This document shows, piece after piece, positions 8,031-42,659 of a stretch of 64,000 nt of DNA (its first letter is position 1; each line of letters starts with the position of its first letter). Position numbers and translations under genes: made by a program. This stretch comes from Akkermansia sp. Its GTDB lineage: Bacteria > Verrucomicrobiota > Verrucomicrobiia > Verrucomicrobiales > Akkermansiaceae. The stretch lies in assembly GCA_017398765.1 (NCBI GenBank), contig JAFQEY010000055.1, positions 1 to 64,000 on the forward strand, in the 5' to 3' direction. The notes under the pieces are model-generated. The model searched no databases, was not told where the DNA came from, and saw only the letters and a list, made by a program, of their open reading frames with translations.

Positions 8031-8187
8031 AAGTCTATGTGAGAATGGAGATTGCAAGAGGCTTTTCCAAGCACTCGGCGCGCATTGTAGCACATTTCGT
8101 TACAAGATAAAAGACTAAACACCGCCATGTGGTCCGAGTTTCTCGGAAAAATGTTAAGGTTGGAGGGGGGAATGTGGTTCTTTGTAT

Positions 8188-8216
8188 TTGACAATCGTTT
8201 GTAGAATGGTTAGTAT
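8188..8216 (+). promoter_or_regulatory. Strong sigma70-type promoter for the secreted protein gene at 8275
   Basis: TTGACA (8188-8193), exactly 17 bp, TAGTAT (8211-8216). Predicted transcription start near 8223, leaving a leader of about 50 nt. It is the closest match to the consensus -35 in this part of the window. Confidence 0.7.
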
Positions 8217-8274
8217 GTCCGCAGACAGACTACCCCTATGGTATGTTTGTTTAATTCAAACCAACATTACAATA

Positions 8275-8715
8275 ATGAAGAAATTAGCATATTTGATGGC
8301 CGCGCTTTTGTGCTGCCCGCTCGTGCAGGCTCAGCAGCCTGCTGCTCCTGCTGCGGCAGAGATTACGGTTGCTGAAGCGGAGGCTGCGGTGGGTGATCTC
8401 ATCGCTGTTATGAACGAAACGTTAGATATTTTGGAGCAGGTAAAGGACAAGGCGAGTGCGGATGCCGCTGCTGAAAAAATTGCAGCAGTAAAACCGCGCA
8501 TGCTTGCTGCACAGACTACATTCGATAAGGTTTCCTCTTTGGATGAAGCGACCCAGGAGAAGCTTGCCATGAAGTTGTTGCCTGCTATGTTCATGCTTGC
8601 TCCCCGCATGGAAAAAGTCACTGAGGCTCTCGAAACTCAGAAATTCTATGGCAGTGATGCTCTCAAAACCGTTCTGGAGGATGAAGGTGAGGGGGTAGAA
8701 GCTACTGAGGACTGA
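8275..8715 (+). CDS. Small secreted protein of unknown function
   Basis: 146 residues from the ATG at 8275; this start gives a clean signal peptide (MKKLAYLMAALLCCPLVQAQ, probable cleavage after AQA/AQ). The upstream in-frame extension runs through the promoter and is rejected. The mature part is helical, alanine- and glutamate-rich, with an acidic C-terminus (EDEGEGVEATED), and has no motif I recognise. It is likely periplasmic. It has its own strong promoter and terminator, so it is a single-gene unit that may be well expressed. Confidence 0.75.
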   Translation: MKKLAYLMAALLCCPLVQAQQPAAPAAAEITVAEAEAAVGDLIAVMNETLDILEQVKDKASADAAAEKIAAVKPRMLAAQTTFDKVSSLDEATQEKLAMKLLPAMFMLAPRMEKVTEALETQKFYGSDALKTVLEDEGEGVEATED

Positions 8716-8749
8716 TTTCCGACGAACAGAAATCTACGTAAACTCTGAT

Positions 8750-8784
8750 ACCCGTTGCGTGTTTTTTGCCGCAACGGGTGTTTT
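8750..8784 (+). terminator. Rho-independent terminator
   Basis: Stem ACCCGTTGCG (8750-8759) / CGCAACGGGT (8770-8779), 10 bp perfect, followed by GTTTT. Ends the unit of the small secreted protein. Confidence 0.8.
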
Positions 8785-8802
8785 ATTCTGAATACGGGGG
8801 GC

Positions 8803-9774
8803 TCAATTATTTCCCTTGGAAGTGTTGTCCTTGTTGCTTTGTTGCATCATGGGCAGAAGCTGTGTCTCTGTGTATTGTATATTTTTTTCGAGCTTTTTAC
8901 CCAGACGAGATTCCGGATTGACGGCGTGTGCCTCCTTCATCCATTTGAGCATGTTGGGGATATCTCGGAGAAAGGCGTAGGTGTCGGATTTGGCGCGGAG
9001 TGCTTCCTGCCGCACGTCCGTATCCAGATCCTCCCGGGCGAGGAATGAGTCCAGCGCGGCGATGTGGCTGCGGATGAGCTGCGGTTCGAACTGCCCGCGG
9101 AAGGAGTCGAGCAGTTCCCGCAGCTCGGCCATTTGCCGGATGCGCGCTTCGCTGACCCGGCAATATCGGCGGTAGCCCAAGGTGTCGTCCGGGTCATGTT
9201 CAGCGATGGATTGCAACAATTCGGGGTATTTATCGCGGCAGGCTTCCGGCAGGAGGTTGAGCGCCTCTGCGAGCGCTCGGGCAGACGCTGCTCCGGTGAG
9301 CGTATGGGCTCGCTTTAGTGCTTCGTTTCGGGCCTTGAGCGTTTCAAATGCCCGATTCAGCAGGGGGAGGTAGTCCGCTGTGGTGCGCGTGGTGCCGGAG
9401 AGCGTGGCAAAAGGATACCCCTGCGCATCCAGCAGAACAGCATAGGGCAACCCCTCCGCCCGATAGGATACCAGCAGTGCCGTGCGTTTGTCCCACTCTT
9501 CCTTCGAGATTTTCTTCACCAGCTCGGGGTTGCGGGGGTAATCCACTTCCACCAGCACCAGCTTATCGTCCATTGCCCTGTTGAATTCCGGCGAATCCAG
9601 TATTTTGGTTCTCAGATGAATACAGGCCGTGCACCAATCCGTACCTGTGAAGTTCAGCATGATGCACCGCCCGTCCTTGCGGGTAACGGACAGGGCTTCT
9701 TCAAGGCCGGTGAATTCGGTCAGGGCGGGCAGCGGAGCGCACAGCAGTGCCCACAGAGCTAGGAGGCGTTTCAT
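8803..9774 (-). CDS. Secreted thioredoxin-fold protein
   Basis: 323 residues from the ATG at 9774, giving the signal peptide MKRLLALWALLCAPLPALT. The thioredoxin-like domain follows: MLNFTGTDWCTACIHL holds a CxxC redox pair (CTAC), and LPYAVLLDAQG supplies the cis-Pro strand. About 190 helical residues follow with no family I recognise. It is expected to act in the periplasm on disulfides or as a thiol-redox partner. The start fits the promoter at 9782-9809, whose -10 box ends 7 bp before this ATG. The C-terminus is Lys/Asn rich. Confidence 0.8.
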   Translation of the reverse strand: MKRLLALWALLCAPLPALTEFTGLEEALSVTRKDGRCIMLNFTGTDWCTACIHLRTKILDSPEFNRAMDDKLVLVEVDYPRNPELVKKISKEEWDKRTALLVSYRAEGLPYAVLLDAQGYPFATLSGTTRTTADYLPLLNRAFETLKARNEALKRAHTLTGAASARALAEALNLLPEACRDKYPELLQSIAEHDPDDTLGYRRYCRVSEARIRQMAELRELLDSFRGQFEPQLIRSHIAALDSFLAREDLDTDVRQEALRAKSDTYAFLRDIPNMLKWMKEAHAVNPESRLGKKLEKNIQYTETQLLPMMQQSNKDNTSKGNN

Positions 9775-11235: not shown

Positions 11236-13890
<2,655 letters not shown>

Positions 13891-29300: not shown

Positions 29301-29548
29301 ACTTAGAGCGTGATTGGCACGACCGCTTTGGTCGCCTCCCACGCGAAGCGCGTCATCTGCTGACTGTCCAGAAAATCCGTATCCTTGCCACGCGCCGCAA
29401 TATCTCACAGGTGGAAATCTCCGGCCAGAAGCTCATGCTCACCCGCAACAAAGATTATATATTGGATAACAAGCGTTTCCCCCGCCTCACCAAGCTGCGA
29501 CCCGTGGATAAGCTCACCGAAACGCTCGGCATGCTGCGCGCTTTGTAA
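26351..29548 (+). CDS. mfd: Transcription-repair coupling factor
   Basis: 1065 residues from a GTG start set by the promoter. The N-terminal UvrB-like region (about 1-340) lacks a working Walker A, as usual. IEEGDLVIHAAHGLGKFMGI marks the RNA polymerase-interacting domain. The helicase motor has GDVGFGKTEVA (Walker A), LAVIDEEQRFGV (DEEQ box), LSATPIPRTL and SGIDIPNANT, QLRGRVGRGG (motif VI) and a C-terminal TRG/D7 region. Mfd displaces RNA polymerase stalled at DNA lesions and recruits UvrA. Slightly shorter than the E. coli protein (1148). It stands as its own unit. Confidence 0.96.
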   Translation: MARPLTEYVAKSPAFAGELARLRRGGTRREPVVFDRVCPAAFSFVSAMVAAQAGTPRRIWVVADALPVQERVAAEWGLWESVPAVFIPERETHINNGLSDPDLAAERLEALKRISGAPREPQAVLVTAAGLRQAAPVFADDSACTLMLAVGQEFPPEQVTALLTERDFDRVEQVTARGEWSLRGGILDVFPLQSPWPLRVEFFGDEIESIRAFDIDSQLSFRKLEEAELVLDEPPSARLLEHFITDDDWVISLPGSGVPGDVLVFELPPDRDEALPQVDEREALGNTAFFGSPLGSFETGDFVMQEARRNLARAGLLQWRRDKWRVLMFFPHEGEKSRFEEICGEDEAWSAVQSRDGDLPFGFTIPGAGVAVLSAAEIFGRYSGPRTRRQDDREDRLRRERAQAPLREIEEGDLVIHAAHGLGKFMGIIRDENSGEQELHIKYAGDVMLRIPLQQSHLVSKYVGLGAKTPELSRLGDARWKRACKAAEKAVADYAAQLLEVQAERESNPGFAHPADSAWMWQFESSFPYRETPDQLRAINQTKADMESPQPMDRLICGDVGFGKTEVAIRAAFKCVTGGKQAAILAPTTVLADQHYRTFRARMSEYPVRIEQLSRFTPPKRVREILQGLAAGEVDIVVGTHRIISKDVHFKNLGLAVIDEEQRFGVRHKEQFKRMFRMVDMLTLSATPIPRTLYTALMGARAMSTIETAPMNRLPVQTAVCPYNEQLIAAAIERELDRNGQVFFLHNRVQSIHDMEATLRRLVPRARIVVGHGQMDKADLECVMRDFVNGKADVLLSTTIIESGIDIPNANTIIIDRADRFGLADLYQLRGRVGRGGHRAYAYLMLPREALCTSDARKRVSAIKQYTELGSGFKIAMRDLEIRGAGNLLGTQQSGHIAAIGFELYCQLLRQSIERLQGKAPTIRAEANFKADFICLSEASMATRADADSLIGAYVPASYMESTRMRMAAYTQLAQATSTEAIDDLERDWHDRFGRLPREARHLLTVQKIRILATRRNISQVEISGQKLMLTRNKDYILDNKRFPRLTKLRPVDKLTETLGMLRAL

Positions 29549-29931: not shown

Positions 29932-30903
29932 ATGTTAGTGTATTACTATTCAGAAGACGGGGGCGTAACGCGTAAGGGCCCCTACACGGCATCTCAGCTG
30001 GATAAGCGGAGACGCCAGGGGTTGGTCGCGACGAATGCTCGCGTGTGGTCTGAAGAATATGAAGCGCAAGCCCCCGGCGATGCTGAGACGAAAAATGAAA
30101 TCCGCAAAACAAGTGTTTGGCGGGTAGTCGGGTGTTTTGTGCTGGTTGGGTTGTTTCTCGGGATATATTTATCCGGCAATGTGGGAGGGGAGATTCAAAC
30201 GGCGGAGAGATTGAGCGCGGAGGGGGGCGCGCCTTTGCCTGGTTTATTTCCTGATGAAGAGGAAGCCGAGTCGGGAATTTCGGAAGAAGTTATGCAGAAT
30301 ATGGAAATCCTTCAGAATCTACGGATTCCTGTTTGCTGTTTTGAGGATACACCCGTTGATGAAGCTCTGATGTTTATTAGTGCTGTGGCGCGAAAGTCCG
30401 GAGTAATGTTGAATCTCATGAGTGAGACCCATGGCGGAGCGGAGCCGGTGATTCCGCATTTGCAACGAGAAGATGTATCTGCTCTGGAATTGCTGGAAGC
30501 CGTCTGCGATGCGAGCGTCTGTTCATTCAGAGTGGAAGCGGTTGGGGTGTTCGTTTATCCCAAGTCTTTGGCTCCTTTGACTAATCGGGAGGAGTACCAA
30601 CCGCAGAATGAAGCAGAGCAGCACTTACTGGATGCGCTGAAAACCATCATGATTCCCCGTTGTTGCTTTGATGGGAATTCCGTGGATGATGCCATGATGT
30701 TTTTATTGGCTGTGACGCGGGATGTTGGTTTCTCCATTAATTATGAGTATGTTGGAGAGCGAGATGTCGTTATCCCGTATCTGAATCTGGAGCAACTCAG
30801 TGCTTATGATTTATTGCGCTGCATTTGCCGCCGCACCGGGTGCGTCTTTTGGCCGGATAACGGCACCGTGGCGGTTGCCCCGGCAGATGAGTTGGAATAC
30901 TGA
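29932..30903 (+). CDS. GYF-domain membrane protein with two secretin-N-like repeats
   Basis: 323 residues. Residues 1-45 are a GYF_2-type adaptor (YYYSEDGGVTRKGPYTASQLD). A single membrane helix follows (VVGCFVLVGLFLGIYLSG, about 65-82). The outer part has two similar units of about 85 residues: LRIPVCCFEDTPVDEALMF and IMIPRCCFDGNSVDDAMMF, each continuing into a strand-rich end with VIPHL/VIPYL. They resemble the short secretin/TonB N-terminal (STN-like) fold, which mediates protein-protein contact in the periplasm. Start ATG is preceded by AAGGATG. First gene of the operon; it may be a membrane scaffold. No enzyme signature. Confidence 0.75.
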   Translation: MLVYYYSEDGGVTRKGPYTASQLDKRRRQGLVATNARVWSEEYEAQAPGDAETKNEIRKTSVWRVVGCFVLVGLFLGIYLSGNVGGEIQTAERLSAEGGAPLPGLFPDEEEAESGISEEVMQNMEILQNLRIPVCCFEDTPVDEALMFISAVARKSGVMLNLMSETHGGAEPVIPHLQREDVSALELLEAVCDASVCSFRVEAVGVFVYPKSLAPLTNREEYQPQNEAEQHLLDALKTIMIPRCCFDGNSVDDAMMFLLAVTRDVGFSINYEYVGERDVVIPYLNLEQLSAYDLLRCICRRTGCVFWPDNGTVAVAPADELEY

Positions 30904-30923
30904 AACAGGAGGAAACGCACACC

Positions 30924-31736
30924 ATGAGACCGTATTACTATTCCATTGATTTCGGAAAAAACTGGGAGGGTCCCTTTAGCCGGGAGGAAATCGATTCTCT
31001 TTGCCGGGTGGGATTGATAGATGCGCGCACCATGGTGAAGGAAGAAGCCGCCAACCCACCGCCGCCTTTCATGTCTCCGGCGTTCTGTGGCGGGCGCGTT
31101 GGCTCTGTCCCTGTCAACAATGCTGTGCAGGAGGACGCCTACATGGTCACGAAAAACGGAATACCGAGCGGTCCTTACCCCGCAAGCTATATCCGTGAGA
31201 TGATGCATCGGGGTGAGGTTCAACCCGGTGATATGGCGTGGAAGAATGGGATGCCCCAGTGGGTGCCCCTTGCTGCGGTTGCGGCATTGGTGCCTCTGGC
31301 TATGCAGACTGATGCCATGAGCGGGCTTGGTCAGGTGCCTTCCGGTGGTTTGTACCCGGGTGGGGATGCAAGCATGGGTACTGCACCTGTCGGGGGGACT
31401 GTCTCTATGGGACCGGATGTTGCGCCTGTTGCGGAGCACTCCGGCCTGGCTGATGTTGTCGGTAAATTGGTAAACAAGGGTATGCGGGAATGGCGCTCCC
31501 ACCAATCTGATGCTGCGTTGAATCCACCACCGCATGCAGAGCCGGGGGCCGTTGTTGCTGATTATGCGGAGTCTGCTGATTATGAAGATTCTGCCGATTA
31601 TGCGGATGCTGCCGATTATGATATCCCGGAGCCGGCAGAGTTGCCTGATATGGAGGGAGCAATGGAAGCCGTGGAGCTGCCGGATGCTGAAACCGGTGCC
31701 GGAATATTTGATTTTCTCAGTGCTTTTTTTGAATAA
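30924..31736 (+). CDS. Double-GYF-domain protein with acidic repeat tail
   Basis: 270 residues. Two GYF_2-type domains: residues 1-42 (YYYSIDFGKNWEGPFSREE) and about 72-115 (YMVTKNGIPSGPYPASY, ending DMAWKNGMPQWVPL). A Gly/Met/Pro linker follows, then an acidic tandem repeat built on SADY/AADY units (about 210-235) and a hydrophobic end GIFDFLSAFFE. GYF domains bind proline-rich peptides; Pro-rich partners are present in this operon. It has a perfect AGGAGG 11 nt before ATG, unusual in this window. No membrane helix, so probably a soluble adaptor. Confidence 0.75.
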   Translation: MRPYYYSIDFGKNWEGPFSREEIDSLCRVGLIDARTMVKEEAANPPPPFMSPAFCGGRVGSVPVNNAVQEDAYMVTKNGIPSGPYPASYIREMMHRGEVQPGDMAWKNGMPQWVPLAAVAALVPLAMQTDAMSGLGQVPSGGLYPGGDASMGTAPVGGTVSMGPDVAPVAEHSGLADVVGKLVNKGMREWRSHQSDAALNPPPHAEPGAVVADYAESADYEDSADYADAADYDIPEPAELPDMEGAMEAVELPDAETGAGIFDFLSAFFE

Positions 31737-31757
31737 TTCATTAACAATAGAAACGGT

Positions 31758-33086
31758 ATGAACTATTATTATTCCATAGACGGAGGGAAAAGTTGGGAAG
31801 GCCCTTTCTCTCAGAGTGAAATTGATAATCTGAAAGCGGTCGGTATTATAGATGCCAAGACCATGATTCGGCAGGACGGCGTGGCGCAGCAGCCCATGCC
31901 GCAGCCTGTGGGCTATTCCAATCAACCCGTTGCACCCCAGATGCCGCCGGCGGAGGAGCAATATATGCTTTTGATCAATGGTGTACCGGCCGGCCCTTAT
32001 CCGGTGAGTACCATTACCCTCATGCTGCAAAATAAAGAAATACGCGTGTCCGATATGGCGTGGAAGGAAGGCATGACCCAGTGGATGCCTCTTTCCTCCA
32101 TACTCAGCACGGATCAGCTTGGGAATTCGCTCCCCTCGCTGCGGGATTTCTCGCTTGGTAAATTTTTCTCCCAGGTGTTTACCCACCATACAAAAGAGGA
32201 AATGCAGGATTGTTTCATAGCCGGTACGCGCCAGGGAACGCCCCCGCTCTCTTCTGTGCAAACAAGCTTCCCGTCGCCCTGGATTTTTGCCAGAATGCTG
32301 GCATTCTGCTTGATTTTGTTCTTTGGATTCGGCTGGGCTTTGGATTATTTCCAAAACGTCTATCTGGTGCCGGGACTTTTATTTGTGGGCAATTTTGCTG
32401 TACCATTCTGTTGCTTTTTCCTGTTCTATGAACTGAATGTACGCCGGGATGTGCTGCTGTATGACGGGCTGAAAGCCTTTGTAGGCGGAGGATTGATATC
32501 ATTGATAGTGGCATTGCTGCTATTCTCTTCTTCCAATTCAACAACTCCTATTTGGGCAGGCCCTGTAGAGGAGCCTGCTAAAGTGTTGGCGGCCGTTTTG
32601 ATTGCCGGTTCAATGAGAAATGGGCGTATCCTGACCGGTTTGGTGTTCGGCGCAGCGGTCGGAGCCGGATTCGCCGCTTTCGAAAGTGCCGGTTATACAT
32701 TTAATACCTTGTGTGTTCTTATTGCTGGGCATTCGGGTGCCGACCCGGACGCAGTGATGCAACTGCGCGCGTTGTTAACACCCTTTGCTCACGTTGTTTG
32801 GACGGCTATTGCCGCGGCGGCTTATTGGATGGTTCTGAATGAAAAAATACGGGAGAAAACCCGCAGCAAAGAGGATTGCTCAATAGATTTCTCTGTTTTT
32901 ACGGATATCCGCTTCCTGCGTATTTTTGCCATTCCGGTTGTGTTGCACATGATTTGGAACAGCTCGTTATTTGCCGAGCATTTCATCATTCGTAATGTTT
33001 CGCTGGGAATTATCGGGTGGATTATCGCCCTGCGCCTGGTGAAGCTCGGGCTGAACCAGATAGCCTATGAAAAATTAAATAGCTAA
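31758..33086 (+). CDS. GYF-GYF-PrsW fusion: intramembrane protease of the PrsW family
   Basis: 442 residues. Two GYF_2 domains (1-42, about 72-115) nearly identical in pattern to those of the preceding gene. From about 175 there are eight or so membrane helices with PrsW motifs: EEPAK (271-275), VGAGFAAFESAGY, HVVW (345-348) and HMIWN (397-401). In PrsW proteases these Glu and His form the metal site that cuts membrane-bound targets (RsiW in Bacillus). The fusion to adaptor domains suggests that substrate or partner choice is made through proline-rich peptides in the same operon. Substrate unknown. Begins 21 nt after the double-GYF gene. Confidence 0.85.
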   Translation: MNYYYSIDGGKSWEGPFSQSEIDNLKAVGIIDAKTMIRQDGVAQQPMPQPVGYSNQPVAPQMPPAEEQYMLLINGVPAGPYPVSTITLMLQNKEIRVSDMAWKEGMTQWMPLSSILSTDQLGNSLPSLRDFSLGKFFSQVFTHHTKEEMQDCFIAGTRQGTPPLSSVQTSFPSPWIFARMLAFCLILFFGFGWALDYFQNVYLVPGLLFVGNFAVPFCCFFLFYELNVRRDVLLYDGLKAFVGGGLISLIVALLLFSSSNSTTPIWAGPVEEPAKVLAAVLIAGSMRNGRILTGLVFGAAVGAGFAAFESAGYTFNTLCVLIAGHSGADPDAVMQLRALLTPFAHVVWTAIAAAAYWMVLNEKIREKTRSKEDCSIDFSVFTDIRFLRIFAIPVVLHMIWNSSLFAEHFIIRNVSLGIIGWIIALRLVKLGLNQIAYEKLNS

Positions 33087-33097
33087 TCAGTAGTTAC

Positions 33098-35083
33098 ATG
33101 AAATTCATATACATATACGATTGCGTATCGGGCAAGCTTCGTGTGGGGCAGACGTGCCCATTGAGCATTGGCAATGCCCCGGAAGCCGGGGCGTTGGTGA
33201 CCATGCTGCCGGGGATTTGTGGTGTGGTCATGAGCCGCGGCTCTGTTAACACTTTCTTCCCCAAGCTGCCCTATGAATGCAATGGCGCAGGCATGGAAGG
33301 CTCTTTCAATCTGGAGGATGGGAAGGGCTATCTGATTGCCTGCAACGGTGGATTGTTCCTGATGCTGTGTTCTCCTGTACCGCCTCAGGCACAGCAGATG
33401 CTTTTTGCCTCATACAACAAGGACGCATGGTACTACTATACGCCGGACCTGGGAGGCTGGCAGGGGCCGCTTACTGCTATGCAGTTGAATGCCATGGCTG
33501 ATCGCCTGAATCCGGCTTCCTGGGTTACCATGACCGGTATGGGGCAGGATAATTATTGCTCTCTGAACGCTTTCCGGGAAATGGCGAGGCGTTTTTATGC
33601 CGTGCAGCCACAGCAGCCCGTCATGCCCGTGCAGCCGCAGCAGCCGGTCATGCCCGTGCAGCCGCAGCAGCCCGTCATGCCCGTGCAGCCGCAACAGCCT
33701 GTCATGCCCGTGCAGCCACAGCAGCCTGTCATGCCCGTGCAGCCGCAACAGCCTGTCATGCCCGTGCAGCCGCAACAGCCTGTCATGCCCGTGCAGCCGC
33801 AGCAAACGAATGCCGCTGTTTATGACGAAGAGGAGGAAGAGGAGTATGAAATGCCTGAAATAGACGAGCACAGCGGGCGTTTTCTCTGCCCGGTGTGTTG
33901 GTTGCGATTTGATGCCGGCGATGTCATGAGCATTGCCAGTCACCCGGATTTGATGGGTGACCCCGTACTGGGGCGTGATGCCATGCTCCGTTTCCAGGCA
34001 ACCCGCTTCAATGCGCGCGGTCAGGCTCTGGATGACAAGGGAATGCCCTGCATGCATTTAGCTTGTCCGCATTGCCGCCATAAATTGCCGCCGCGTTTTC
34101 TGGAAATTGAGGAGATGATTTTCTCTATCATCGGCGCACCCTCCTCCGGAAAATCGTATTATCTTGCTTCCTTTATCCATGAAATGGCCTACAAGGTAGC
34201 CCCGGAGTTTAATCTGGCATGGCGAGATGCGGACCCCGCCGGCAATTCCCAGCTCAACGATGTGAGTAACCGCCTGTTTTCAGCGGCTACGCCTCAGCAG
34301 GCATACCTCTCCAAAACAGACTTGGAAGGTGCTCTCTATGAGGAATTTTACCGCCATGGTCGCATGGTTAAATTGCCTAAGCCATTCGTGTTTAATTTAT
34401 CCAAGATGCAGAGCAAGAAACCGCCGCTGTCTCTGGTGTTCTATGATAATGCCGGGGAGCATTTTGAACCGGGGCGCAATAATGAGGATTCCCCCGGGGC
34501 CATGCATGTGGCGGTGGCCTCCGGCCTTTTCTTCCTGTTTGACCCGACCTCTTGCCCGGCTTTCCGCAAGCTGATTACGCACCGCGAGGACCCCCAGCTG
34601 AATTCCAACGGGATGCAGCTGGACCAGCAGGCCATCATCATGGCTGAAACGGAGTCTCGCATTGCCTCCATTCTCAACACCGGCCCGGGTGAGCAGATAA
34701 GCACACCTTTTGCTGTGCTTATCGGGAAATGCGATTTGTGGGAAGACTACCTCTCCACGCCGGAGGGTGGCGGTAAGCCTCTGTTGCCGGCTGTGGTAAA
34801 CGGTAAGCTGATTCGTGAAAATGTGGAGGCCAATTCTCAGCGTTTGCGTAAACTGATGATGAAGATACAGCCGGCTATTTGTACGACTGCTGAGAGTATC
34901 TCTGACAATGTGCGCTACTTTGCAATCTCCCAGTTGGGCTGTTCCCCGGTAACTTTTGAAGATGAGTTGACTGGGGTTACCCGAATCGGCCCCGACCCCA
35001 ACGGAATTGCCCCGCGTTACATGTGTGATGCAACCTTGTGGATGCTCAGCCTGCTGGCACCTGATTATATACCCTCAGTATAA
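33098..35083 (+). CDS. P-loop GTPase (double-GTPase-like family) with GYF-like segment and zinc ribbon
   Basis: 661 residues. A GYF-like stretch (about 110-135, WYYYTPDLGGWQGPLTA) precedes seven and a half copies of a VQPQQPVMP repeat (169-236). A zinc ribbon is formed by C264/C267 and C323/C326. The GTPase domain follows: GAPSSGKS (346-353, G1), DNAGE (450-454, G3) and GKCD (543-546, G4). This pattern resembles the DO-GTPase (double-GTPase) proteins that accompany GAP1 in predicted NTP-dependent conflict systems. No membrane helix. The proline repeat is a natural ligand for the GYF domains encoded nearby. Starts 11 nt after the PrsW gene. Confidence 0.8.
   Translation: MKFIYIYDCVSGKLRVGQTCPLSIGNAPEAGALVTMLPGICGVVMSRGSVNTFFPKLPYECNGAGMEGSFNLEDGKGYLIACNGGLFLMLCSPVPPQAQQMLFASYNKDAWYYYTPDLGGWQGPLTAMQLNAMADRLNPASWVTMTGMGQDNYCSLNAFREMARRFYAVQPQQPVMPVQPQQPVMPVQPQQPVMPVQPQQPVMPVQPQQPVMPVQPQQPVMPVQPQQPVMPVQPQQTNAAVYDEEEEEEYEMPEIDEHSGRFLCPVCWLRFDAGDVMSIASHPDLMGDPVLGRDAMLRFQATRFNARGQALDDKGMPCMHLACPHCRHKLPPRFLEIEEMIFSIIGAPSSGKSYYLASFIHEMAYKVAPEFNLAWRDADPAGNSQLNDVSNRLFSAATPQQAYLSKTDLEGALYEEFYRHGRMVKLPKPFVFNLSKMQSKKPPLSLVFYDNAGEHFEPGRNNEDSPGAMHVAVASGLFFLFDPTSCPAFRKLITHREDPQLNSNGMQLDQQAIIMAETESRIASILNTGPGEQISTPFAVLIGKCDLWEDYLSTPEGGGKPLLPAVVNGKLIRENVEANSQRLRKLMMKIQPAICTTAESISDNVRYFAISQLGCSPVTFEDELTGVTRIGPDPNGIAPRYMCDATLWMLSLLAPDYIPSV
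33602..33805 (+). repeat. 27-bp in-frame tandem repeat (7.5 copies)
   Basis: Seven full 27-bp units plus a 15-bp partial unit, each coding VQPQQPVMP. Units differ only at third positions (CCA/CCG, CAG/CAA, CCC/CCT/CCG). Copy number could vary between strains. It lies wholly inside the GTPase gene. Confidence 0.92.
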
Positions 35084-35098
35084 AATTAACCCAATCGT

Positions 35099-37249
35099 AT
35101 GCTTCAGCTCGTTTACACCAGTGCCCCCCGCCTGCTGGAAGCAGGGAAAACCGGTTTCGGTACGGTGGCTCGCTCCCGCCGTATCCCCCAGCCTCTTGTA
35201 GCTTATTTGGAACGTATCAGCACCTTTGACCGTGCGGCAGGGGTGACTGAGTTGCAATTTTACAGCGTATTCCGAATGGGGAAGATGCTTTACCACGTCT
35301 TTTCCCGCGTGGCGGATTGCGGTGTGGATTATACCCGCCGCACCAACCACATAGCGCACCATTGGGTCATGGCGGATGATGATGCCGCCGCCCCGGGAAT
35401 GAGTGCCTCTACCCCGGCCGGGGTGTTGCTGGCTCTGCGTGGGCTTTGGCTGAATACCTGGCAGGGAAATCCTGCGTGGCTGGAAGATGAGCCGGAAGTG
35501 TATCCCGAAGTCACGAGCGGAACCGATGTCTGGCAGAGAATTACAGGGCAGGGGGATAATGCCCGCTGGCTTTCTGCCCCGGAGTATGCGATGGGGGGGT
35601 ATGTGACCCTGCCCGCCACCTGCGCTGCGGGAGAAGAGCTTCGCCTGCTTCACGAATCCGCCATGTTGCGGGGGAATCACGGCTGGGGGGAAGGTTTTAC
35701 CACTGCCTCCGTGGAAACGCTCAGCAGCAAGGTGTGTCCGCTGGTGTGTCTCTCTGCTGCGCAACAGTCTGCCGGAGTGCGCCCCCGCAGTGGCGTGCCC
35801 TTGCTGCAGGTGCAGGAGGGGATGGTGCCGCCCCCCCCGGAGGTTCTCCCTGTTGAGCAGTCTGTCCCCTATTCAGCACCGGCAGAGGCCGTTGCACCCG
35901 TTTGTCCGGAGATGCCGACAGCATTGCCTGTTGGCGGTATGCCGGTGATGGCTCCCACGCCGCTCCCCACGTATACTCCCACTGCTCAGCCTGTGTATCA
36001 GGCTCCTCCGCCCTCATATTATCCTGCCGCTGAGCCGCAGTTCCCGGTGCCGAATAACGCCATCGGCAAGGCGAGTAAGACTGTTTCGCGTGACTCTGCA
36101 TCCAAAGGCAACGGCGTTCTTTTCGGTGTCCTTATAGGCTTAGGTATTGCTGCTGTCGGATTCCTGGTTTATACTCAACAGCAGGAAAATAAGAGCTCGA
36201 AACTTACGGATGTTAAACCGCCTGAGCCGACTACAGCGCAAAAGTCAGATATCCCGACAGATGCCCCGTCTGCAGATGCTGACAAGCCTGCAGATGCTGA
36301 CAAGCCTGCGGATGCTAAGAAGCCTGCGGATGCCGACAATACTGCCGCTGCCGACAAACCTGCGGATGCCGGTAAGCCTGTCGCTACTGACAAGCCAGTG
36401 GATGCCGACAACACTCCGGCTGCTGACAAGCCTGCCGCTGCCGACAATCCTGCGGATGTCGGCACGCCTGTCTCTGTTGACAAGCCTGCCGCTGTTGAGA
36501 AGCCTGAGGATGCCCAGAAGCCTGCGGATACCGACAAACCTGCCGCTGCTGCAGAAACCCCGACCTCTCCTGATGCTGATACACTCAAACCCGGAGAGTT
36601 TAAATTAAAGGTTAACTCTGGAGTTAAAGTGGAGATTGATTGGGCGTCTGAAAAGATTAAGGTAAGGTGTACCCCGATGGTGGAGAAAAGTGATGTAATC
36701 AAGAGGGAAGCTACGCTTAGCGGGTCGACTCTGTGGATAGGTAACAAAGAAATGGTTGACCGTACCGAGCTGAAGAAGAAAAACTATGAAGAACCCATTC
36801 CGGAAGCTCTGTTGCAGAAGCAAGCGGAACTTAAAGCTGCCGGCAATATTCTGAAGGAAAAAAAGGAAGCCTTGAAAGATAAGGAGTTCCCTTCGCTTGA
36901 TGGTAAAAAAAGCGGAAAAAGACGTTTTACTCGCAAGGAACTAGATAAACGAATCGCCCAAGAGGAAGAGAAGAAAAACGTAAAGGAGATACAGCGTTTG
37001 CAAGGTGTCAAAGCCGCAGCAAAACCTTTCTTTGAATGGGAAGATGCAAGAGCTCAGGTAAAACAATTAGGGCAAGAAGAAGAAACCCTGAAAAAAGAGC
37101 ATGAAACTGCGTTAACGAAACACTATGGTACATGCGAGATTATCTTTAAAAAAGGTAAAGTAGACGGTATGATTCAGTATTTGGAATACAGAATCATCGA
37201 TAAGGCACCGTTGATTGAGAATCCTCAGCAAGAACAGAAGAAACAATGA
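35099..37249 (+). CDS. GAP1-N2-like protein with membrane helix, repeats and coiled coil
   Basis: 716 residues. The N-terminal about 230 residues match the GTPase-associated protein 1 N-terminal domain type 2: QLVYTSAPRLL, GFGTVARSRRIPQPLVAYLE, FRMGKMLYHVFSR, RTNHIAHHWV. A Pro-rich stretch (about 240-320) leads to one membrane helix (VLFGVLIGLGIAAVGFLVY, about 339-358). Then come about 95 residues of degenerate DKPADA repeats (395-490) and a Lys/Glu-rich coiled-coil end. The enzymatic parts of longer GAP1 proteins are not seen. Its place directly after the GTPase gene supports a GTPase-partner role. The next gene overlaps it by 4 bp (ATGA). Confidence 0.78.
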   Translation: MLQLVYTSAPRLLEAGKTGFGTVARSRRIPQPLVAYLERISTFDRAAGVTELQFYSVFRMGKMLYHVFSRVADCGVDYTRRTNHIAHHWVMADDDAAAPGMSASTPAGVLLALRGLWLNTWQGNPAWLEDEPEVYPEVTSGTDVWQRITGQGDNARWLSAPEYAMGGYVTLPATCAAGEELRLLHESAMLRGNHGWGEGFTTASVETLSSKVCPLVCLSAAQQSAGVRPRSGVPLLQVQEGMVPPPPEVLPVEQSVPYSAPAEAVAPVCPEMPTALPVGGMPVMAPTPLPTYTPTAQPVYQAPPPSYYPAAEPQFPVPNNAIGKASKTVSRDSASKGNGVLFGVLIGLGIAAVGFLVYTQQQENKSSKLTDVKPPEPTTAQKSDIPTDAPSADADKPADADKPADAKKPADADNTAAADKPADAGKPVATDKPVDADNTPAADKPAAADNPADVGTPVSVDKPAAVEKPEDAQKPADTDKPAAAAETPTSPDADTLKPGEFKLKVNSGVKVEIDWASEKIKVRCTPMVEKSDVIKREATLSGSTLWIGNKEMVDRTELKKKNYEEPIPEALLQKQAELKAAGNILKEKKEALKDKEFPSLDGKKSGKRRFTRKELDKRIAQEEEKKNVKEIQRLQGVKAAAKPFFEWEDARAQVKQLGQEEETLKKEHETALTKHYGTCEIIFKKGKVDGMIQYLEYRIIDKAPLIENPQQEQKKQ
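36268..36550 (+). repeat. Degenerate repeats coding DKPADA-type units
   Basis: Successive 18-bp-type units (GCTGACAAGCCTGCAGAT and variants) code Asp-Lys-Pro-Ala motifs in the GAP1-like protein. The array is less regular than the 27-bp array at 33602-33805 and probably forms an extended stalk. Confidence 0.75.
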
Positions 37250-39978
37250 CAACACCCGCTACAAAAGATTTATACAAACAGCTGCGTACGGCTACACTGA
37301 CCAAGGATGAAGCCGCTGCAGTACGTATCCTGAAACGCATACTTGAGGCTGATCCGGGAGATAAGGATGCCGCTAAGCAATTAGCCGCTCTGACTGCCGG
37401 TGGAAAAGGCAGTGCTGCTTCCGGAGAAAAAAAGAAGAAGAAAAAGGAAGCATCTGCCACAAAAATGCTCTATCAGCGTTACCGCTCAGCGTGCATGGCT
37501 CACAATGATGCGGAGGCTTTCGACTTGCTGGAGGAAATCCTGAAACTGGATCCGGAGGATAGTGAGGCTGTCGCGCAAAAGACCGCTGTCGGTAAACGCC
37601 TTGCAAGTAGTTACGCTCCGGAGTTAGCAGAGGCGGTAGCCTCCGGCGAGGTGGAAAAAATTACCCGCATGCTGGAGAAGTTGCAGCGTTATGCGTCGGA
37701 TGAGTATCTGCAAATGCTGCCGGACTATGCCTCTGCAAAGGCTATTTATCGGGCAGAACAAACCAGAGTTACTAAAGAGAAGCTCAAAGCTCTGATAGAT
37801 GAGTTTTCTCAAATACAGGAACCTTTCGCCCGCCATGAAAAGGCCTCTTCCATACAGGATTTTGCAGAGAAAAACGGTTTGGTGCTTGAGCCTGAGACAC
37901 AGGCGGGTATAGCGGGTGCTCATGAGGCGTGGGAACAATTATGCCGCGAATCCGAGCAGTATGAGGAATTCAATACACTGGCGGATGAGTACAAACAACT
38001 GCAACAGAAAGTTTCTTTGCGTGAGGGATTGCAGAATTGCCGCGTTGAGCTGGAGCTGCTTCGGGAAAGAACCCGGCAGCTGACCGAGGTGTCGGAGGCT
38101 GACTATCTGGTGGAGCAGATAGACAAAACCATGAGAAAGGTCATGCGTGCGCAACAGGAGCAGAAGAAAAAGAAGCTGGTGTTGCGTGGCTTTACGTGGG
38201 GGGGCTTGGCCCTGCTTGCCGCCGCTGGCGGTTTGTGTGTTTATGCCCACACCAGCGTGGAAACGCGTTGTCAGGAGCTGGCACAAGTGCTCTCGAACAA
38301 AAATATTCAGGGAACACGGGTTCTGGTGGATAAAGCGTACCCCATGGCTTACATTTACAAGAAAATGGATGCCGGTTACACTGAGCTGCTGAACCGGGCG
38401 AGTGCCTGGCTCAAAGCATACGATGTTCACGCCGACAATGTGGCAGCGTATGAGAAGTGGTTGGATGAGCATCTGGGAAAAAGTTCTTTGTCTCAGTCAG
38501 AAACCTTGCTGGAGAATATCGGCAGGGGTGAAACCTTGCTCTCAGAATTGGCCAATGTGTTCGGGCTTACGCCCTCTGCTGAGTTGATTCGAAAACATAA
38601 GCAGTTTTGCAGTGAAGTCATCAGCTTAAAACAGAAAGCCTTTGACAAGTATAGCAATCCTCCCGGAGATGTCGGATTGGAGGTGTTAGCTAACCAATAT
38701 AAGGAGTATGTTGGCCTGCGGCATATTATGGAGTTCTCCGGGGAAGAAAATACGGTTATTCAGCAGGCTTTCCGCCAACGGGCAGAGAGAGTTTTATTCC
38801 AAAACGTAGAGGATGCAAGGGAGTTGAACAAAGCGATAGAGCAGTGTAAGAAATATATGAGCTCTCTGGAGCTGCCCTCCGAGATGCTTGACCGCCTGAT
38901 TGCTCTGCGTGATGAACTGCAGGAGTACCAAAACCTTGATCAGCAGCTCAAACAGTGCTCTACGCTGGATGAATATATACGAACGCTTCGCAAATGTGAG
39001 AAATATCTGGGGGCTGTTTCCGGGAGTTGTACTCCCGATATGCTGGCATCATTTGCACACCGGCTGCCTGATATCCTGTTCCGCATGCGGGCGGATGCCT
39101 TGAGCCGAAAGTATGCTCGCATGAGTGATAGTGAGCTCAGGTCGAAACTGGAGCGGATTCGGCAGGTATATTCCGGCAAAGCTTCCCTGTTCTCTGATTT
39201 TAACAAAACAAAATACTCCGGAATTGTGGACAAAATGACGCTCCCTGAGTCCGGGGCTCACTGGTCAGACAAATTCCGCCAGATTATTTGTGGCGATAAG
39301 GTCTACATCGGCAAGATATCCAAGGTGAATGACGTCCCTTATGTGCGAGAGGTAACCCCGAATGGCAAACTCTCCGATGAAGCCTTGAAGATTACCGGCG
39401 TGTATAAAAATATACCGTTGGTGATGAAGACGCTGCGAGCCAATGTCGGTATCAGCCGCATGGATTTACAGCGTTGTGTGCTTTTACCCACTAACCTGAT
39501 GAGCAGTTTGGCAAAGGCGAATGATAAAACCTATTCACCCCTGGCGCGGGCTTATCTCTTCGGGCTTTGTGTTCAGATGCTCGATTGTGTGGATGAAGAG
39601 GACTCCGGGGTATTGCTTTCTGCGCAGCTGCGGAAGGACATTGCCGCGTTCAATGAGTTGTCCCAGTGGCTTTCTCGGCATAAAATACCTCTGGCTGAGA
39701 ATTGTTGGACAAAGCGGCACTCTCTGGAAGCAGAGCGAAAAATCAACAGGTTCTTTGAATCTGTTGCCAATAAGGATTATGCGGCGGATATCATGGAATC
39801 TGTTGATCGCATGCGGAGCAAAGAGTGCGAATTGGTTGGATATGTCAATAAGGAAGGAAACTATGTTCCGTTGAAAACGAAAAAATCTGATAAAATGTAT
39901 CAGTTTTCGAATGGAAAGCTGGTGGAGCACATGGATGGAAAAGGTGCTCCCTATGCTCCGGTATTTGTCATTGATTGA
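37246..39978 (+). CDS. Large membrane protein with TPR-like and coiled-coil regions
   Basis: 910 residues. The N-terminus has two TPR-like helical pairs (AVRILKRILEADPGDKDAAKQL; AFDLLEEILKLDPEDSEAV) separated by a run of eight or so Lys. Coiled coils fill about 120-305, then a single membrane helix (TWGGLALLAAAGGLCVYA, about 316-333) and about 570 mostly helical residues, probably outside the cytoplasm. No enzymatic motif is seen. Overlapping start codon (ATGA) with the GAP1-like gene implies translational coupling and similar dosage. A structural membrane-spanning partner of the GTPase/GAP1 pair is the simplest reading. Confidence 0.7.
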   Translation: MTTPATKDLYKQLRTATLTKDEAAAVRILKRILEADPGDKDAAKQLAALTAGGKGSAASGEKKKKKKEASATKMLYQRYRSACMAHNDAEAFDLLEEILKLDPEDSEAVAQKTAVGKRLASSYAPELAEAVASGEVEKITRMLEKLQRYASDEYLQMLPDYASAKAIYRAEQTRVTKEKLKALIDEFSQIQEPFARHEKASSIQDFAEKNGLVLEPETQAGIAGAHEAWEQLCRESEQYEEFNTLADEYKQLQQKVSLREGLQNCRVELELLRERTRQLTEVSEADYLVEQIDKTMRKVMRAQQEQKKKKLVLRGFTWGGLALLAAAGGLCVYAHTSVETRCQELAQVLSNKNIQGTRVLVDKAYPMAYIYKKMDAGYTELLNRASAWLKAYDVHADNVAAYEKWLDEHLGKSSLSQSETLLENIGRGETLLSELANVFGLTPSAELIRKHKQFCSEVISLKQKAFDKYSNPPGDVGLEVLANQYKEYVGLRHIMEFSGEENTVIQQAFRQRAERVLFQNVEDARELNKAIEQCKKYMSSLELPSEMLDRLIALRDELQEYQNLDQQLKQCSTLDEYIRTLRKCEKYLGAVSGSCTPDMLASFAHRLPDILFRMRADALSRKYARMSDSELRSKLERIRQVYSGKASLFSDFNKTKYSGIVDKMTLPESGAHWSDKFRQIICGDKVYIGKISKVNDVPYVREVTPNGKLSDEALKITGVYKNIPLVMKTLRANVGISRMDLQRCVLLPTNLMSSLAKANDKTYSPLARAYLFGLCVQMLDCVDEEDSGVLLSAQLRKDIAAFNELSQWLSRHKIPLAENCWTKRHSLEAERKINRFFESVANKDYAADIMESVDRMRSKECELVGYVNKEGNYVPLKTKKSDKMYQFSNGKLVEHMDGKGAPYAPVFVID

Positions 39979-40000
39979 AAATAGTAACAAACTTGAAGAA

Positions 40001-42154
40001 ATGAACGTTCATCAATTATTTTATCCGTTGTTATTATTGGCTTTGGGCGCGGGTGGACTGTGCAGCACGGTTCAGGCACAGGGCGGAATGCGTGAGCTGG
40101 AATACAGGGCAAGACAACACGATGACCCGGTTGCCATGCGTAAGTTGGGGCTTATTCACTACCGTGGTCTGTACGGATACAAACGTAGCTATAAGTTTGC
40201 CGCAGGATGGTTCGAAAAGGCTGTCAGAGAAGGTGATGCCGAATCCATGCTCTTGCTGGGTGACTGTTACCGCCAGGGGAAGGGGGTCAGTAAGAGTACA
40301 TATAAGGCATTTGATTTGTACAAGGATGCCATGGAGGCGGATAAGGGCAAGCGCAAAGAAGCATTGAAAAAAATCAAACTTTTGCCGCTGTCTGATACGC
40401 TGAGTTGGTGGCAGGAGCAAGTGGAGGAGCGCAAAGACAAAGAAGCCGCTTATTTCCTTGCTACGGTGGATGAAAAATACTGGGATGGCCGTTTCTCTCA
40501 GGAAAAAGCGGATATTTACATGGTTAAGGCTGCCCGGATGGGGCATAAGAAAGCTCAGTCCGCCATTGAGAGTGAGTCGCTTTCCCGTTATTTGCCGGCC
40601 AGAGAAAAAATTGCCCGCGATGGCTCGGATGCTGATTTGGTCAAATTGGCAGAAGAATTGCTGGCCTCTGAAAATTGCACCCCGGAGCACCGTAAAAAAG
40701 CGGTAGAGTATTATGAGGAAGCGGCAGAGGATGGCAATTATGATGCCAGGCGCTGGCTGGAAAAGGAGCAGGATAAGAGCTGGGAGGAATTGGCGGATGC
40801 GCTGGAGAGTAATCAATTCAGCCGCACTGTTGAGCTGCTTCGGCAAATGGAGTCACCCAAGGGGCGGGATTTGTCTGCCGTCTTACTTGTTGCGCTCAAA
40901 AAAAATCGTTTGGATAAAAAGATTGTTGAGCTGATATTGGAGAAAGGTGCAGATAAGAGTTACTCTGATGAGGATAGGATGACACTGCTGATGGCCGCCA
41001 TTTCCGGAGACCAGCCGGAAGAGGTTGTCAATCTCTTCATTCAGGAAAATCACCATCTGAATGCCGCGCTGCGGGATTCCGGGCAAACAGCTCTTATGCT
41101 GGCGGTTCAGGCAGGAAAACCAGAGCTTGTTGAGGCGTTAATAAAGAACGGTGCGAATATCTACGCTGAAGATAATAACAAAAAAACTGCTCTTGATTAT
41201 GCTTCTTCTCCGAAAGTCAGAGAAATAATCAGCCGTGCAGCTGAAGAGAAAAAACAAGCTGAAATCAATGAGATATTCAACCTGGGAACACAGGATCAAT
41301 TTGGAAAACTGGTAGAGCTTATCGCTCGGCAGGATGTGGACACGCTGCGGTATCTCATTCAGAAAGGCATGTCGGTCAAGATGTGTGATGCCGGGTTCAG
41401 AGACACGTTCCGCGAGGCATCCGCCTCCCGGATTGAGGCTCAGGTATGCGGGTCACTATTTGAAAAAGAGATTATGAAAAACAGGTTCACCGCCGGATTC
41501 AACCCCCGCGTGTGGTTCACCTATGGTTCATCTCTCCTGTTTTTTGCCGTAGATGTAGGTAACCCGGAAATAGTGAAGATGTTGATAGCCGCCGGGGCAC
41601 CTGTTAACGCTACGGACAATTTCGGCCTTAACGCATTGGCAAAAGCCGTGCTGCAACAAAAACAGAAAATCGTGAAAATCCTGCTGGAATCCGGCGCGGC
41701 TTCGTCCATAGATGTTGCTATCCATTCAGAATGCTATGATATTGTCTATAACGTTGTCAAGAGCGGTTCGGCTGCGGAATTGAGAGAATTGTACTCAAAT
41801 GTAAACGTTTTGTTGAATCCGCCCGGAGAAACAACCAGTGTGAGAGAATTGGTGTTGGAGTTAGAGCCTTCTGACGGAATACGCAAATTGGTAGAACCCT
41901 ATCTGCAGCAATCATCGCCGGAAAAAGGAGATGCCGCCTCGAACGTTTCCAAGGAAAAAATGCTTTCAACAGATATGTTGGAAGATGAAAGTAGCAATAC
42001 TTCCGGCGAAAAACTATGGAATCTTAGTCAGGAAGAACAGAAAAATGCCGAACTTGGCTGTTATATCGGCGGTTCCGTTATGGTTCTTCTGGGGTTATTT
42101 CTCCTTGGCAAGTCCAGGAGCAATGCGAGGAAAAAAAAGGTCATTGCCGACTAA
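40001..42154 (+). CDS. Secreted Sel1-repeat and ankyrin-repeat protein with C-terminal anchor
   Basis: 717 residues from ATG 40001 (upstream in-frame codons overlap the preceding gene). Signal peptide MNVHQLFYPLLLLALGAGGLCSTVQA. Sel1-like repeats occupy about 25-250 (AMRKLGLIHYRGLYGY; AESMLLLGDCYRQGKGV). Ankyrin repeats follow (about 310-420: ALMLAVQAGKPELVEALIKNGANIYAED; about 500-570: VDVGNPEIVKMLIAAGAPVNATD, KIVKILLESGA). A late membrane helix (GGSVMVLLGLFLLG) and a basic end leave most of the chain outside the cytoplasm. Both repeat types bind proteins. No catalytic motif. Confidence 0.78.
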   Translation: MNVHQLFYPLLLLALGAGGLCSTVQAQGGMRELEYRARQHDDPVAMRKLGLIHYRGLYGYKRSYKFAAGWFEKAVREGDAESMLLLGDCYRQGKGVSKSTYKAFDLYKDAMEADKGKRKEALKKIKLLPLSDTLSWWQEQVEERKDKEAAYFLATVDEKYWDGRFSQEKADIYMVKAARMGHKKAQSAIESESLSRYLPAREKIARDGSDADLVKLAEELLASENCTPEHRKKAVEYYEEAAEDGNYDARRWLEKEQDKSWEELADALESNQFSRTVELLRQMESPKGRDLSAVLLVALKKNRLDKKIVELILEKGADKSYSDEDRMTLLMAAISGDQPEEVVNLFIQENHHLNAALRDSGQTALMLAVQAGKPELVEALIKNGANIYAEDNNKKTALDYASSPKVREIISRAAEEKKQAEINEIFNLGTQDQFGKLVELIARQDVDTLRYLIQKGMSVKMCDAGFRDTFREASASRIEAQVCGSLFEKEIMKNRFTAGFNPRVWFTYGSSLLFFAVDVGNPEIVKMLIAAGAPVNATDNFGLNALAKAVLQQKQKIVKILLESGAASSIDVAIHSECYDIVYNVVKSGSAAELRELYSNVNVLLNPPGETTSVRELVLELEPSDGIRKLVEPYLQQSSPEKGDAASNVSKEKMLSTDMLEDESSNTSGEKLWNLSQEEQKNAELGCYIGGSVMVLLGLFLLGKSRSNARKKKVIAD

Positions 42155-42203
42155 ACACCCATAAAATGAACATTTCTAAATAAACACAAACCTCAGTAGA
42201 AAG

Positions 42204-42659
42204 ATGTCGCAGTACTATGTAGGTAAGCCCGGTGAAAACCCCACGGGCCCGTTTACGGAAGAGACCATTCTTAAGGGCATGGCAGATGGCACTTTCCCGC
42301 CGGATTCAAAGGCCTGGAAAGAGGGTATGGATAGTTGGCTGACTCTGGCAGAGTTGTTTGGCTCAGCTCAGGGGCATTCCGTTCCGGACAAGGCCGCGGA
42401 GCAAACGGTTGTAATTCCTTCGGTGGAGCCTTTGCCTCAAAGCGCGCAGCCGCAGGAAGCTTCTCCGGTGCCTCATCCCGAAAAGAAAAAACGCAAGAAA
42501 AATAAGCTTCGGAAGAATGTTAATATTGATGATGAGCTGCCGCCGCCTCCCGCCACAGGGAACAATCTGTTCATCGTGGTTGGTGGTTTATTGGTTGTCG
42601 CGGGAGTGCTTATTATCTGTATACCGGATGTGCTGAATCAGTATCTTCAGCTTTGGTAA
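42204..42659 (+). CDS. GYF-domain protein with C-terminal membrane helix
   Basis: 151 residues. One GYF_2 domain (1-52: YYVGKPGENPTGPFTEE, then DSKAWKEGMDSWLTLAELF), a Pro/Lys-rich linker and one C-terminal membrane helix (LFIVVGGLLVVAGVLIICI). Its GYF domain faces the cytoplasm in the likely orientation. Last gene of the operon, 49 nt after the Sel1/ankyrin gene and followed by a stable hairpin. Confidence 0.78.
   Translation: MSQYYVGKPGENPTGPFTEETILKGMADGTFPPDSKAWKEGMDSWLTLAELFGSAQGHSVPDKAAEQTVVIPSVEPLPQSAQPQEASPVPHPEKKKRKKNKLRKNVNIDDELPPPPATGNNLFIVVGGLLVVAGVLIICIPDVLNQYLQLW

What the first reader, a model, noticed from the sequence alone, without database searches (positions are those of the whole stretch)
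31758..33086. PrsW-type intramembrane protease fused to two GYF domains
Two adaptor domains precede a PrsW core with all its expected metal-site motifs (EEPAK, HVVW, HMIWN). PrsW proteases normally start sigma-factor release by cutting an anti-sigma factor, but no sigma or anti-sigma gene is in the window. The adaptor fusion suggests recruitment to or by the GTPase/GAP1 complex, so proteolysis may be the output of the system.
Basis: partly seen in the sequence, partly recalled or inferred. Interest (0 to 1): 0.6.

Follow-up and report, generated by a model that had tools for sequence, protein, structure and literature searches.

The report
Adaptor-guided membrane protease beside GTPase switch
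An Akkermansia-type gut bacterium carries a membrane-embedded protease with two small peptide-binding adaptor domains in the same gene cluster as a GTPase switch system; it belongs to a widespread but little-noticed family in which the adaptor is repeatedly swapped, and it could be the cutting arm of that switch, which is untested.

Summary
The 442-aa ORF at 31758-33086 has two GYF domains and a PrsW core with all four published PrsW motifs. It is gene 3 of an eight-gene co-oriented cluster with a DO-GTPase, GAP1-N2 and further GYF proteins.

It is not the sigma-regulating PrsW (15.8 of 225 bits). It belongs to a wide family, distinct from that PrsW, with exchangeable N-terminal adaptors: GYF in 48, zinc ribbon in 23 and FHA alone in 7 of 92 distinct members. 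The DO-GTPase N-terminus itself is predicted as FHA plus GYF, so switch and protease share adaptor types.

For: a divergent GYF-PrsW lies 0.1-0.2 kb from a DO-GTPase in a planctomycete MAG.

Best reading: a protease docked to the GTPase/GAP1 complex that cuts single-pass membrane proteins, perhaps its operon's own. Docking and substrates are inferred.

The parts
31758..33086 (+). GYF-GYF-PrsW gene, 442 aa (the finding)
31767..31889 (+). GYF domain 1 (residues 4-44)
   Evidence: profile rows listed; two GYF_2 stretches; two GYF
31962..32102 (+). GYF domain 2 (residues 69-115)
   Evidence: structural match to GltJ GYF 7z3c, Z 6.4, rmsd 3.9 over 65 residues
32280..33080 (+). PrsW membrane domain, eight predicted helices, N-in/C-in
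   Evidence: model pLDDT 87; 13 K/R on predicted inside loops versus 0 outside; best matches APH-1 5a63_C Z 12.2 and other APH-1 / BOS translocon chains
32568..32582 (+). motif 1 EEPAK (E271, E272, K275)
32670..32684 (+). motif 2 FAAFE (E309)
32790..32801 (+). motif 3 HVVW (H345)
32946..32960 (+). motif 4 HMIWN (H397, N401)
29932..30903 (+). GYF + one hydrophobic segment (60-86) + likely extracytoplasmic domain, 323 aa; candidate partner/substrate
   Evidence: GYF_2 20.9 of 25.8 bits, below cut-off
30924..31736 (+). double-GYF protein, 270 aa; N-terminus 43-45% identical to that of the GYF-PrsW
33098..35083 (+). DO-GTPase, 661 aa, starts 11 bp after the PrsW stop
   Evidence: Pfam DO-GTPase2 19.4 of 27 bits; up to 63% identity to other DO-GTPases
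33098..33382 (+). FHA-like fold at DO-GTPase N-terminus (residues 1-95)
   Evidence: EmbR Z 8.5, rmsd 3.3 over 87 residues
33416..33595 (+). GYF-like domain of DO-GTPase (about residues 107-166)
   Evidence: profile E 2.4e-4 for 43 tested; GYF structure 1wh2 in Foldseek list
33600..33804 (+). proline-rich 27-bp tandem repeat x7.6 in DO-GTPase (9-residue unit)
35099..37249 (+). GAP1-N2 protein, 716 aa, proline-rich linker then one hydrophobic segment 337-360; candidate ligand/substrate
37246..39978 (+). 910-aa partner, related to the protein in the same place in L061
39911..42154 (+). Sel1/ankyrin protein (747 aa; start may be 39935), hydrophobic segments 36-54 and 713-735
42204..42659 (+). GYF + C-terminal hydrophobic segment (117-148), 151 aa; candidate partner/substrate

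Best explanation
The gene encodes an intramembrane protease of a PrsW branch distinct from the sigma-regulating PrsW, in which a small cytosolic adaptor (GYF, zinc ribbon or FHA) is fused ahead of the membrane core. Here the two GYF domains face the cytosol. They would dock the protease on proline-rich segments of the co-encoded DO-GTPase (tandem repeat) and GAP1-N2 (linker), so that the GTPase/GAP1 state controls access to the substrate. The substrates would be single-pass membrane proteins, most simply those of the same operon (GAP1, the 323-aa and 151-aa GYF proteins, the Sel1/ankyrin protein); their cleavage would free a cytosolic part or dismantle the complex. Shown by sequence or prediction: architecture, active-site residues, gene cluster, predicted topology, adaptor types shared with the GTPase. 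Inferred: GYF ligand, gating by the GTPase, substrate, conflict or defence role.
For: Eight genes on one strand with gaps of 11-49 bp or overlaps, 29932-42659. Complete PrsW active site. Predicted N-in topology. Four of nine GYF_2 hits in the genome lie in this cluster. The DO-GTPase has an FHA-like plus GYF-like N-terminus. Proline-rich stretches: DO-GTPase 0.33 and GAP1 0.30 proline in 60 residues. Related cluster in G039 with a PrsW remnant upstream of a 63%-identical DO-GTPase. Planctomycete MAG: GYF-PrsW divergent from DO-GTPase/GAP1-N2. GYF proteins lie near GAP1-N2 in 6 of 16 planctomycete regions examined, as published for planctomycetes (PMC7159879, passages). Genus co-occurrence 22 both, 4 PrsW only, 18 DO-GTPase only, 15 neither; Fisher p 0.024, not corrected for kinship.
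Against: PrsW is present in only 2 of 43 DO-GTPase loci examined in the order (7 of 50 not examined) and in 1 of 16 planctomycete GAP1-N2 regions. Of 113 PrsW-centred loci, duplicates included, only four places have a DO-GTPase or GAP1 in the sequence held, one of these with GAP1 alone about 5 kb away. Four genus genomes hold GYF-PrsW without a detected DO-GTPase. Proline-rich GAP1 linkers also occur in loci without GYF genes (L121 0.42) and the G039 DO-GTPase lacks the repeat, so the ligand is not fixed by these data. No PPG-plus-aromatic motif (the classical GYF ligand, recalled) was found in the DO-GTPase or GAP1. The window's genome and most relatives are draft genomes, many of them MAGs.
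Confidence: 0.4

Rival explanations
1. An autonomous adaptor-PrsW that acts in trans on envelope or housekeeping membrane proteins; its place in this cluster is a passenger or recent capture.
For: Standalone GYF-PrsW genes in most relatives, in changing neighbourhoods; wide family in many phyla without a nearby GTPase; present without a detected DO-GTPase in 4 of 26 genus genomes.
Against: 11-bp spacing to the DO-GTPase and GYF paralogues in the same cluster; repeated pairing with DO-GTPase in G039 and a planctomycete MAG.
Confidence: 0.35
2. A classical PrsW that starts sigma-factor release by cutting an anti-sigma factor.
For: Active-site motifs shared with canonical PrsW.
Against: Scores 15.8 of 225 bits against the NCBIfam PrsW equivalog; canonical and adaptor PrsW coexist as separate genes in three Firmicute genomes; no zf-HC2 anti-sigma domain in the genome.
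Confidence: 0.07
3. The membrane core is only an anchor for GYF domains and is not proteolytic.
For: A related subclade (4 of 92 rows) has lost motif-1 and motif-3 residues (KE for EE, E for H); in planctomycete GAP1-N2 regions GYF is fused to other hydrophobic regions without a PrsW hit.
Against: All catalytic positions kept here and in 87 of 92 rows.
Confidence: 0.12

Closest known systems
PrsW of Bacillus subtilis (RsiW site-1 protease; PF13367, NF033739)
   Same: Four active-site motifs and membrane core
   Different: Conserved region before the core (F153, P174, W175), N-terminal adaptor; fails the equivalog model; canonical PrsW is a separate paralogue in Firmicutes that have both
GAP1-N2 / DO-GTPase systems (Kaur et al. 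2020, PMC7159879, passages only)
   Same: DO-GTPase followed by GAP1-N2 and membrane partners; the paper reports planctomycete GYF pairs fused to trypsin or a TM-rich region
   Different: PrsW is not named in the paper's main text (0 hits); FHA is mentioned there only for other systems; here the GTPase itself bears FHA-like and GYF-like folds
LIC_20173 of Leptospira, PrsW-PilZ fusion (PMC12943098, passages only)
   Same: PrsW core joined to a soluble signalling domain
   Different: C-terminal PilZ rather than N-terminal GYF
GltJ GYF domain of Myxococcus (PDB 7z3c)
   Same: Closest solved GYF by sequence and fold
   Different: Gliding motility protein, no protease
APH-1 of gamma-secretase and a BOS translocon subunit
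   Same: Best structural matches of the membrane core, Z about 10-12; kinship of PrsW and APH-1 is published (PMC4602095, passages)
   Different: No adaptor fusion; not the same function

Membership tests
PrsW family (PF13367) | Profile score over the curated cut-off | tested here: met
   74.7 bits versus 23.5
PrsW family (PF13367) | EExxK, FxxxE, H, HxxxD/N motifs | tested here: met
   motif list from PMC12943098
PrsW family (PF13367) | Proteolytic activity | not testable with these tools
   no experiment
Canonical sigma-regulating PrsW (NF033739) | Equivalog cut-off 225 bits | tested here: not met
   15.8 bits; one partial canonical control scored 226.9, another partial control 184.6
Canonical sigma-regulating PrsW (NF033739) | Acts on a membrane anti-sigma factor | tested here: inconclusive
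   no zf-HC2 in the 84%-complete genome; other anti-sigma types not searched
GAP1-N2 / DO-GTPase system | GAP1-N2 next to a DO-GTPase | tested here: met
   GAP1-N2 58.5 bits versus cut-off 24; DO-GTPase2 19.4 of 27 bits, below cut-off in the window protein, but 28.0 (over cut-off) in its 63%-identical relative in L061
GAP1-N2 / DO-GTPase system | FNIII-repeat component | tested here: inconclusive
   no FNIII hit in the eight cluster proteins at E 0.1; the paper calls these repeats rapidly evolving, so a profile may miss them
GYF domain | GYF_2 profile and fold | tested here: met
   53.2 bits versus 25.8; 7z3c match
GYF domain | Binding of proline-rich peptides | not testable with these tools
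   no binding data

The most novel reading that the evidence does not exclude
An intramembrane protease is the GTPase-gated effector of a bacterial DO-GTPase/GAP1-N2 conflict system, recruited through a small set of adaptors (GYF, FHA, zinc ribbon) shared by the GTPase and a bacteria-wide family of adaptor-fused PrsW proteases, so that regulated intramembrane proteolysis takes the place of the trypsin or caspase outputs described for such systems.
Probability: 0.25. Interest if true: 0.75.

Novelty: new variant of a known kind. Interest (0 to 1): 0.5.

Why it matters
PrsW is known almost only as the protease that starts sigma-factor release. A broad branch with exchangeable adaptors, present in many phyla, suggests that PrsW-type cleavage is aimed at other targets by docking. 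If tied to DO-GTPase/GAP1, it would give that untested class of predicted conflict systems a measurable biochemical output, and a way to test how the GTPase is read.

Tried and rejected
Tried and rejected, or weak. (a) Classical sigma/anti-sigma pathway: equivalog model failed, no zf-HC2 in the genome. (b) Known defence models: PADLOC gave no hit for the PrsW; only ankyrin-type hits and a weak PD-T4-6 hit elsewhere in the cluster. PHROGs gave hits only for the Sel1/ankyrin protein. (c) A conserved neighbour of standalone GYF-PrsW: Sel1/ankyrin genes within four genes in 5 of 30 PrsW loci versus 2 of 53 control loci, p 0.09, not significant; a hand-made motif was part of the test. (d) The published TM-rich GYF proteins of planctomycete GAP1-N2 loci as hidden PrsW: no PrsW profile hit in those found here; only the Singulisphaera MAG had one. 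(e) An empty insertion site: the regions after the conserved gene ending at 29548 differ widely in 13 relatives, so no clean site could be read. (f) Classical GYF ligand: no PPG-plus-aromatic motif in DO-GTPase or GAP1. (h) Sigma factors and anti-sigma types other than zf-HC2 were not searched. (i) Paper searches for GltJ with GYF and MglA, and for GYF with PrsW, returned nothing.

The tree is a quick one with long-branch warnings; its counts are rough. The labels ZnR and FHA come from hand-made patterns; Pfam confirmed FHA in 2 of 3 labelled proteins checked, and the one ZnR protein checked scored below the cut-off. Foldseek gave no PDB match at E 0.001 or better for either model.

Full report
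Observation. The ORF at 31758-33086 (+, 442 aa, ATG) is real. Pfam finds PrsW-protease (E 9.2e-21, 74.7 bits against a cut-off of 23.5) and GYF_2 (E 2.5e-14, two stretches). In an alignment of 23 relatives E271, E272, K275, E309, H345, H397 and N401 are invariant. In 92 distinct members of the wider family 87 keep the full set with N or D at the last place, four have KE for EE and E for H, and one is truncated. These positions align with canonical PrsW from Planococcus and Marinococcus and with the published B. subtilis motifs (PMC12943098, passages).

Structure and topology. The AlphaFold2 model has mean pLDDT 87. The membrane part matches APH-1 of gamma-secretase (5a63_C, Z 12.2, rmsd 4.0, 189 residues) and chains of the BOS translocon complex. 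These are middling values for a helical bundle, but they agree with the published PrsW/APH-1 superfamily (PMC4602095, passages). Foldseek alone gave no match at E 0.001 or better. The second GYF matches the GltJ GYF domain 7z3c by sequence (E 2.8e-6 with the family profile) and by fold (Z 6.4). On the predicted helices, lysine and arginine fall only on alternate loops (13 counted inside, 0 outside, four-residue margins included), which puts the GYF domains and the C-terminus in the cytosol.

Genomic setting. Eight genes run on one strand from 29932 to 42659, with gaps of 11-49 bp or overlaps: a GYF protein with a hydrophobic segment, a double-GYF protein, GYF-PrsW, DO-GTPase, GAP1-N2, a 910-aa protein, a Sel1/ankyrin protein and a small GYF protein with a C-terminal hydrophobic segment. 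The genome has nine GYF_2 hits, four of them here. A second DO-GTPase/GAP1-N2 locus without PrsW is on another contig of the same genome.

The DO-GTPase carries adaptors as well. Its first 170 residues were modelled with five relatives (pLDDT 85). Residues 1-95 match FHA domains throughout the result list (best Z 8.5, EmbR). The following part is GYF-like: profile E 2.4e-4 for 43 tested N-termini, 7 of 43 at E 0.01 or less and 0 of 860 shuffles, and a GYF structure (1wh2) appears in the Foldseek list. The Foldseek E-values are 2.6e-3 or worse. Behind it lie a 27-bp proline-rich tandem repeat (7.6 copies) and CxxC pairs.

Distribution. PrsW-domain matches with this query were counted by hand: 26 of 59 genomes of the genus including the window's, and 2 of 38 others in the order. 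A scan of genome contigs found 351 relatives; the best 80 were kept. After removal of 24 duplicate or short rows from 116 ORFs, 92 rows remained: GYF1 40, GYF2 6, GYF+FHA 2, zinc ribbon 23, FHA 7, none of these 14. On a quick tree the GYF label needs 8 changes, at least 4 forced by starred branches (long-branch warnings apply). GYF-PrsW rows come from Verrucomicrobiota, Planctomycetota, Acidobacteriota, Actinomycetota and Bacillota. In three Firmicute genomes adaptor-PrsW and canonical PrsW are separate genes; one partial canonical sequence passed the NCBIfam equivalog (226.9 of 225 bits), a second partial one scored 184.6, and the window protein scored 15.8.

Link to the GTPase system. For: adjacency here; in G039 a PrsW remnant, cut next to a transposase-like ORF near a contig end, lies directly upstream of a 63%-identical DO-GTPase followed by GAP1-N2 and relatives of the further partners; and on a 16-kb contig of a Singulisphaera MAG a GYF-PrsW reading frame (start 13648 at the earliest) runs away from a DO-GTPase that starts at 13530 on the other strand, with GAP1-N2 behind that GTPase, a second DO-GTPase/GAP1-N2 pair and a MotA/ExbB gene on the same contig. 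GYF proteins lie in 6 of 16 planctomycete GAP1-N2 regions examined (two of 17 positive genomes were not fetched), in line with the published GYF pairs of planctomycetes (PMC7159879, passages). Against: a PrsW was found in 2 of 43 DO-GTPase loci examined in the order (7 of 50 not fetched) and in 1 of the 16 planctomycete regions. Of 113 PrsW-centred loci, duplicates included, only the window, L061, L275 and L049/L201 had a DO-GTPase or GAP1 in the sequence held, the last with GAP1 alone about 5 kb away. Co-occurrence in the genus is 22 with both, 4 PrsW only, 18 DO-GTPase only, 15 neither (Fisher p 0.024, kinship not corrected). Among the neighbours of the standalone copies, groups shared by three loci or more reflect common synteny or are Sel1/ankyrin genes, whose excess is not significant.

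Mechanism. Shown by sequence or prediction: an intact protease site, cytosolic GYF domains, tight gene linkage to DO-GTPase and GAP1-N2, proline-rich stretches in both (0.33 and 0.30 proline in 60 residues), and several proteins of the cluster with one or two hydrophobic segments. Inferred: GYF domains dock the protease to these stretches; GTPase state controls access; a membrane protein of the cluster is cut. The weakest step is the ligand, since proline-rich GAP1 linkers also occur where no GYF gene is near.

Comparison with the literature. In the searched library the GAP1-N2/DO-GTPase class of bacteria rests on one computational paper (one further paper of the listing, PMC11237479, holds the term once and was not read). 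PrsW has no hit in that paper's main text and FHA is named there only for other systems; its figures and source data were not seen. No paper in the library holds both GYF and PrsW. The whole is a new variant of known kinds: a PrsW-family protease with adaptor fusion inside a GAP1-N2-type gene cluster.

Noticed in passing
L047:9857-11314, L055:8935-10413, L056:1-1467: Akkermansia GYF-PrsW paralogues that lost motif 1 and motif 3 residues (KE for EE, E for H); in L047 one lies in tandem with an intact copy, suggesting a pseudoprotease partner.
   Followed up: partly
33098-33595: The DO-GTPase N-terminus is predicted as FHA-like plus GYF-like, with similar W...WxGP signatures in many DO-GTPases of the order.
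   Followed up: partly
33600-33804 and 36270-36543: Tandem repeats: 27 bp x7.6 (proline-rich) in the DO-GTPase and 18 bp x15 in GAP1.
   Followed up: no
L061:1-1932: A transposase-like ORF lies against a cut PrsW gene just upstream of a DO-GTPase/GAP1-N2 cluster in G039.
   Followed up: partly
29932-30903: GYF protein with one hydrophobic segment and a weak match to the Amuc_1098 pilus outer-membrane family (E 1.3e-5).
   Followed up: no
L049:4917-7290 and 8033-8876: A GAP1-like protein next to an FHA protein with no DO-GTPase found in the 15 kb held.
   Followed up: no
L275:4781-7411: MotA/ExbB-type gene and two companions inside a planctomycete DO-GTPase/GAP1-N2 locus.
   Followed up: no
30804-32354 (-): 516-aa antisense ORF across the GYF genes; codon usage favours the + strand genes, so it looks spurious.
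   Followed up: partly
after 29548: The gene ending at 29548 is conserved in 59 of 59 genus genomes searched, but what follows it differs in the 13 relatives looked at.
   Followed up: partly
L062 (G000:C93:52000-71900): Three further GYF_2 hits cluster on another contig of the same genome.
   Followed up: no
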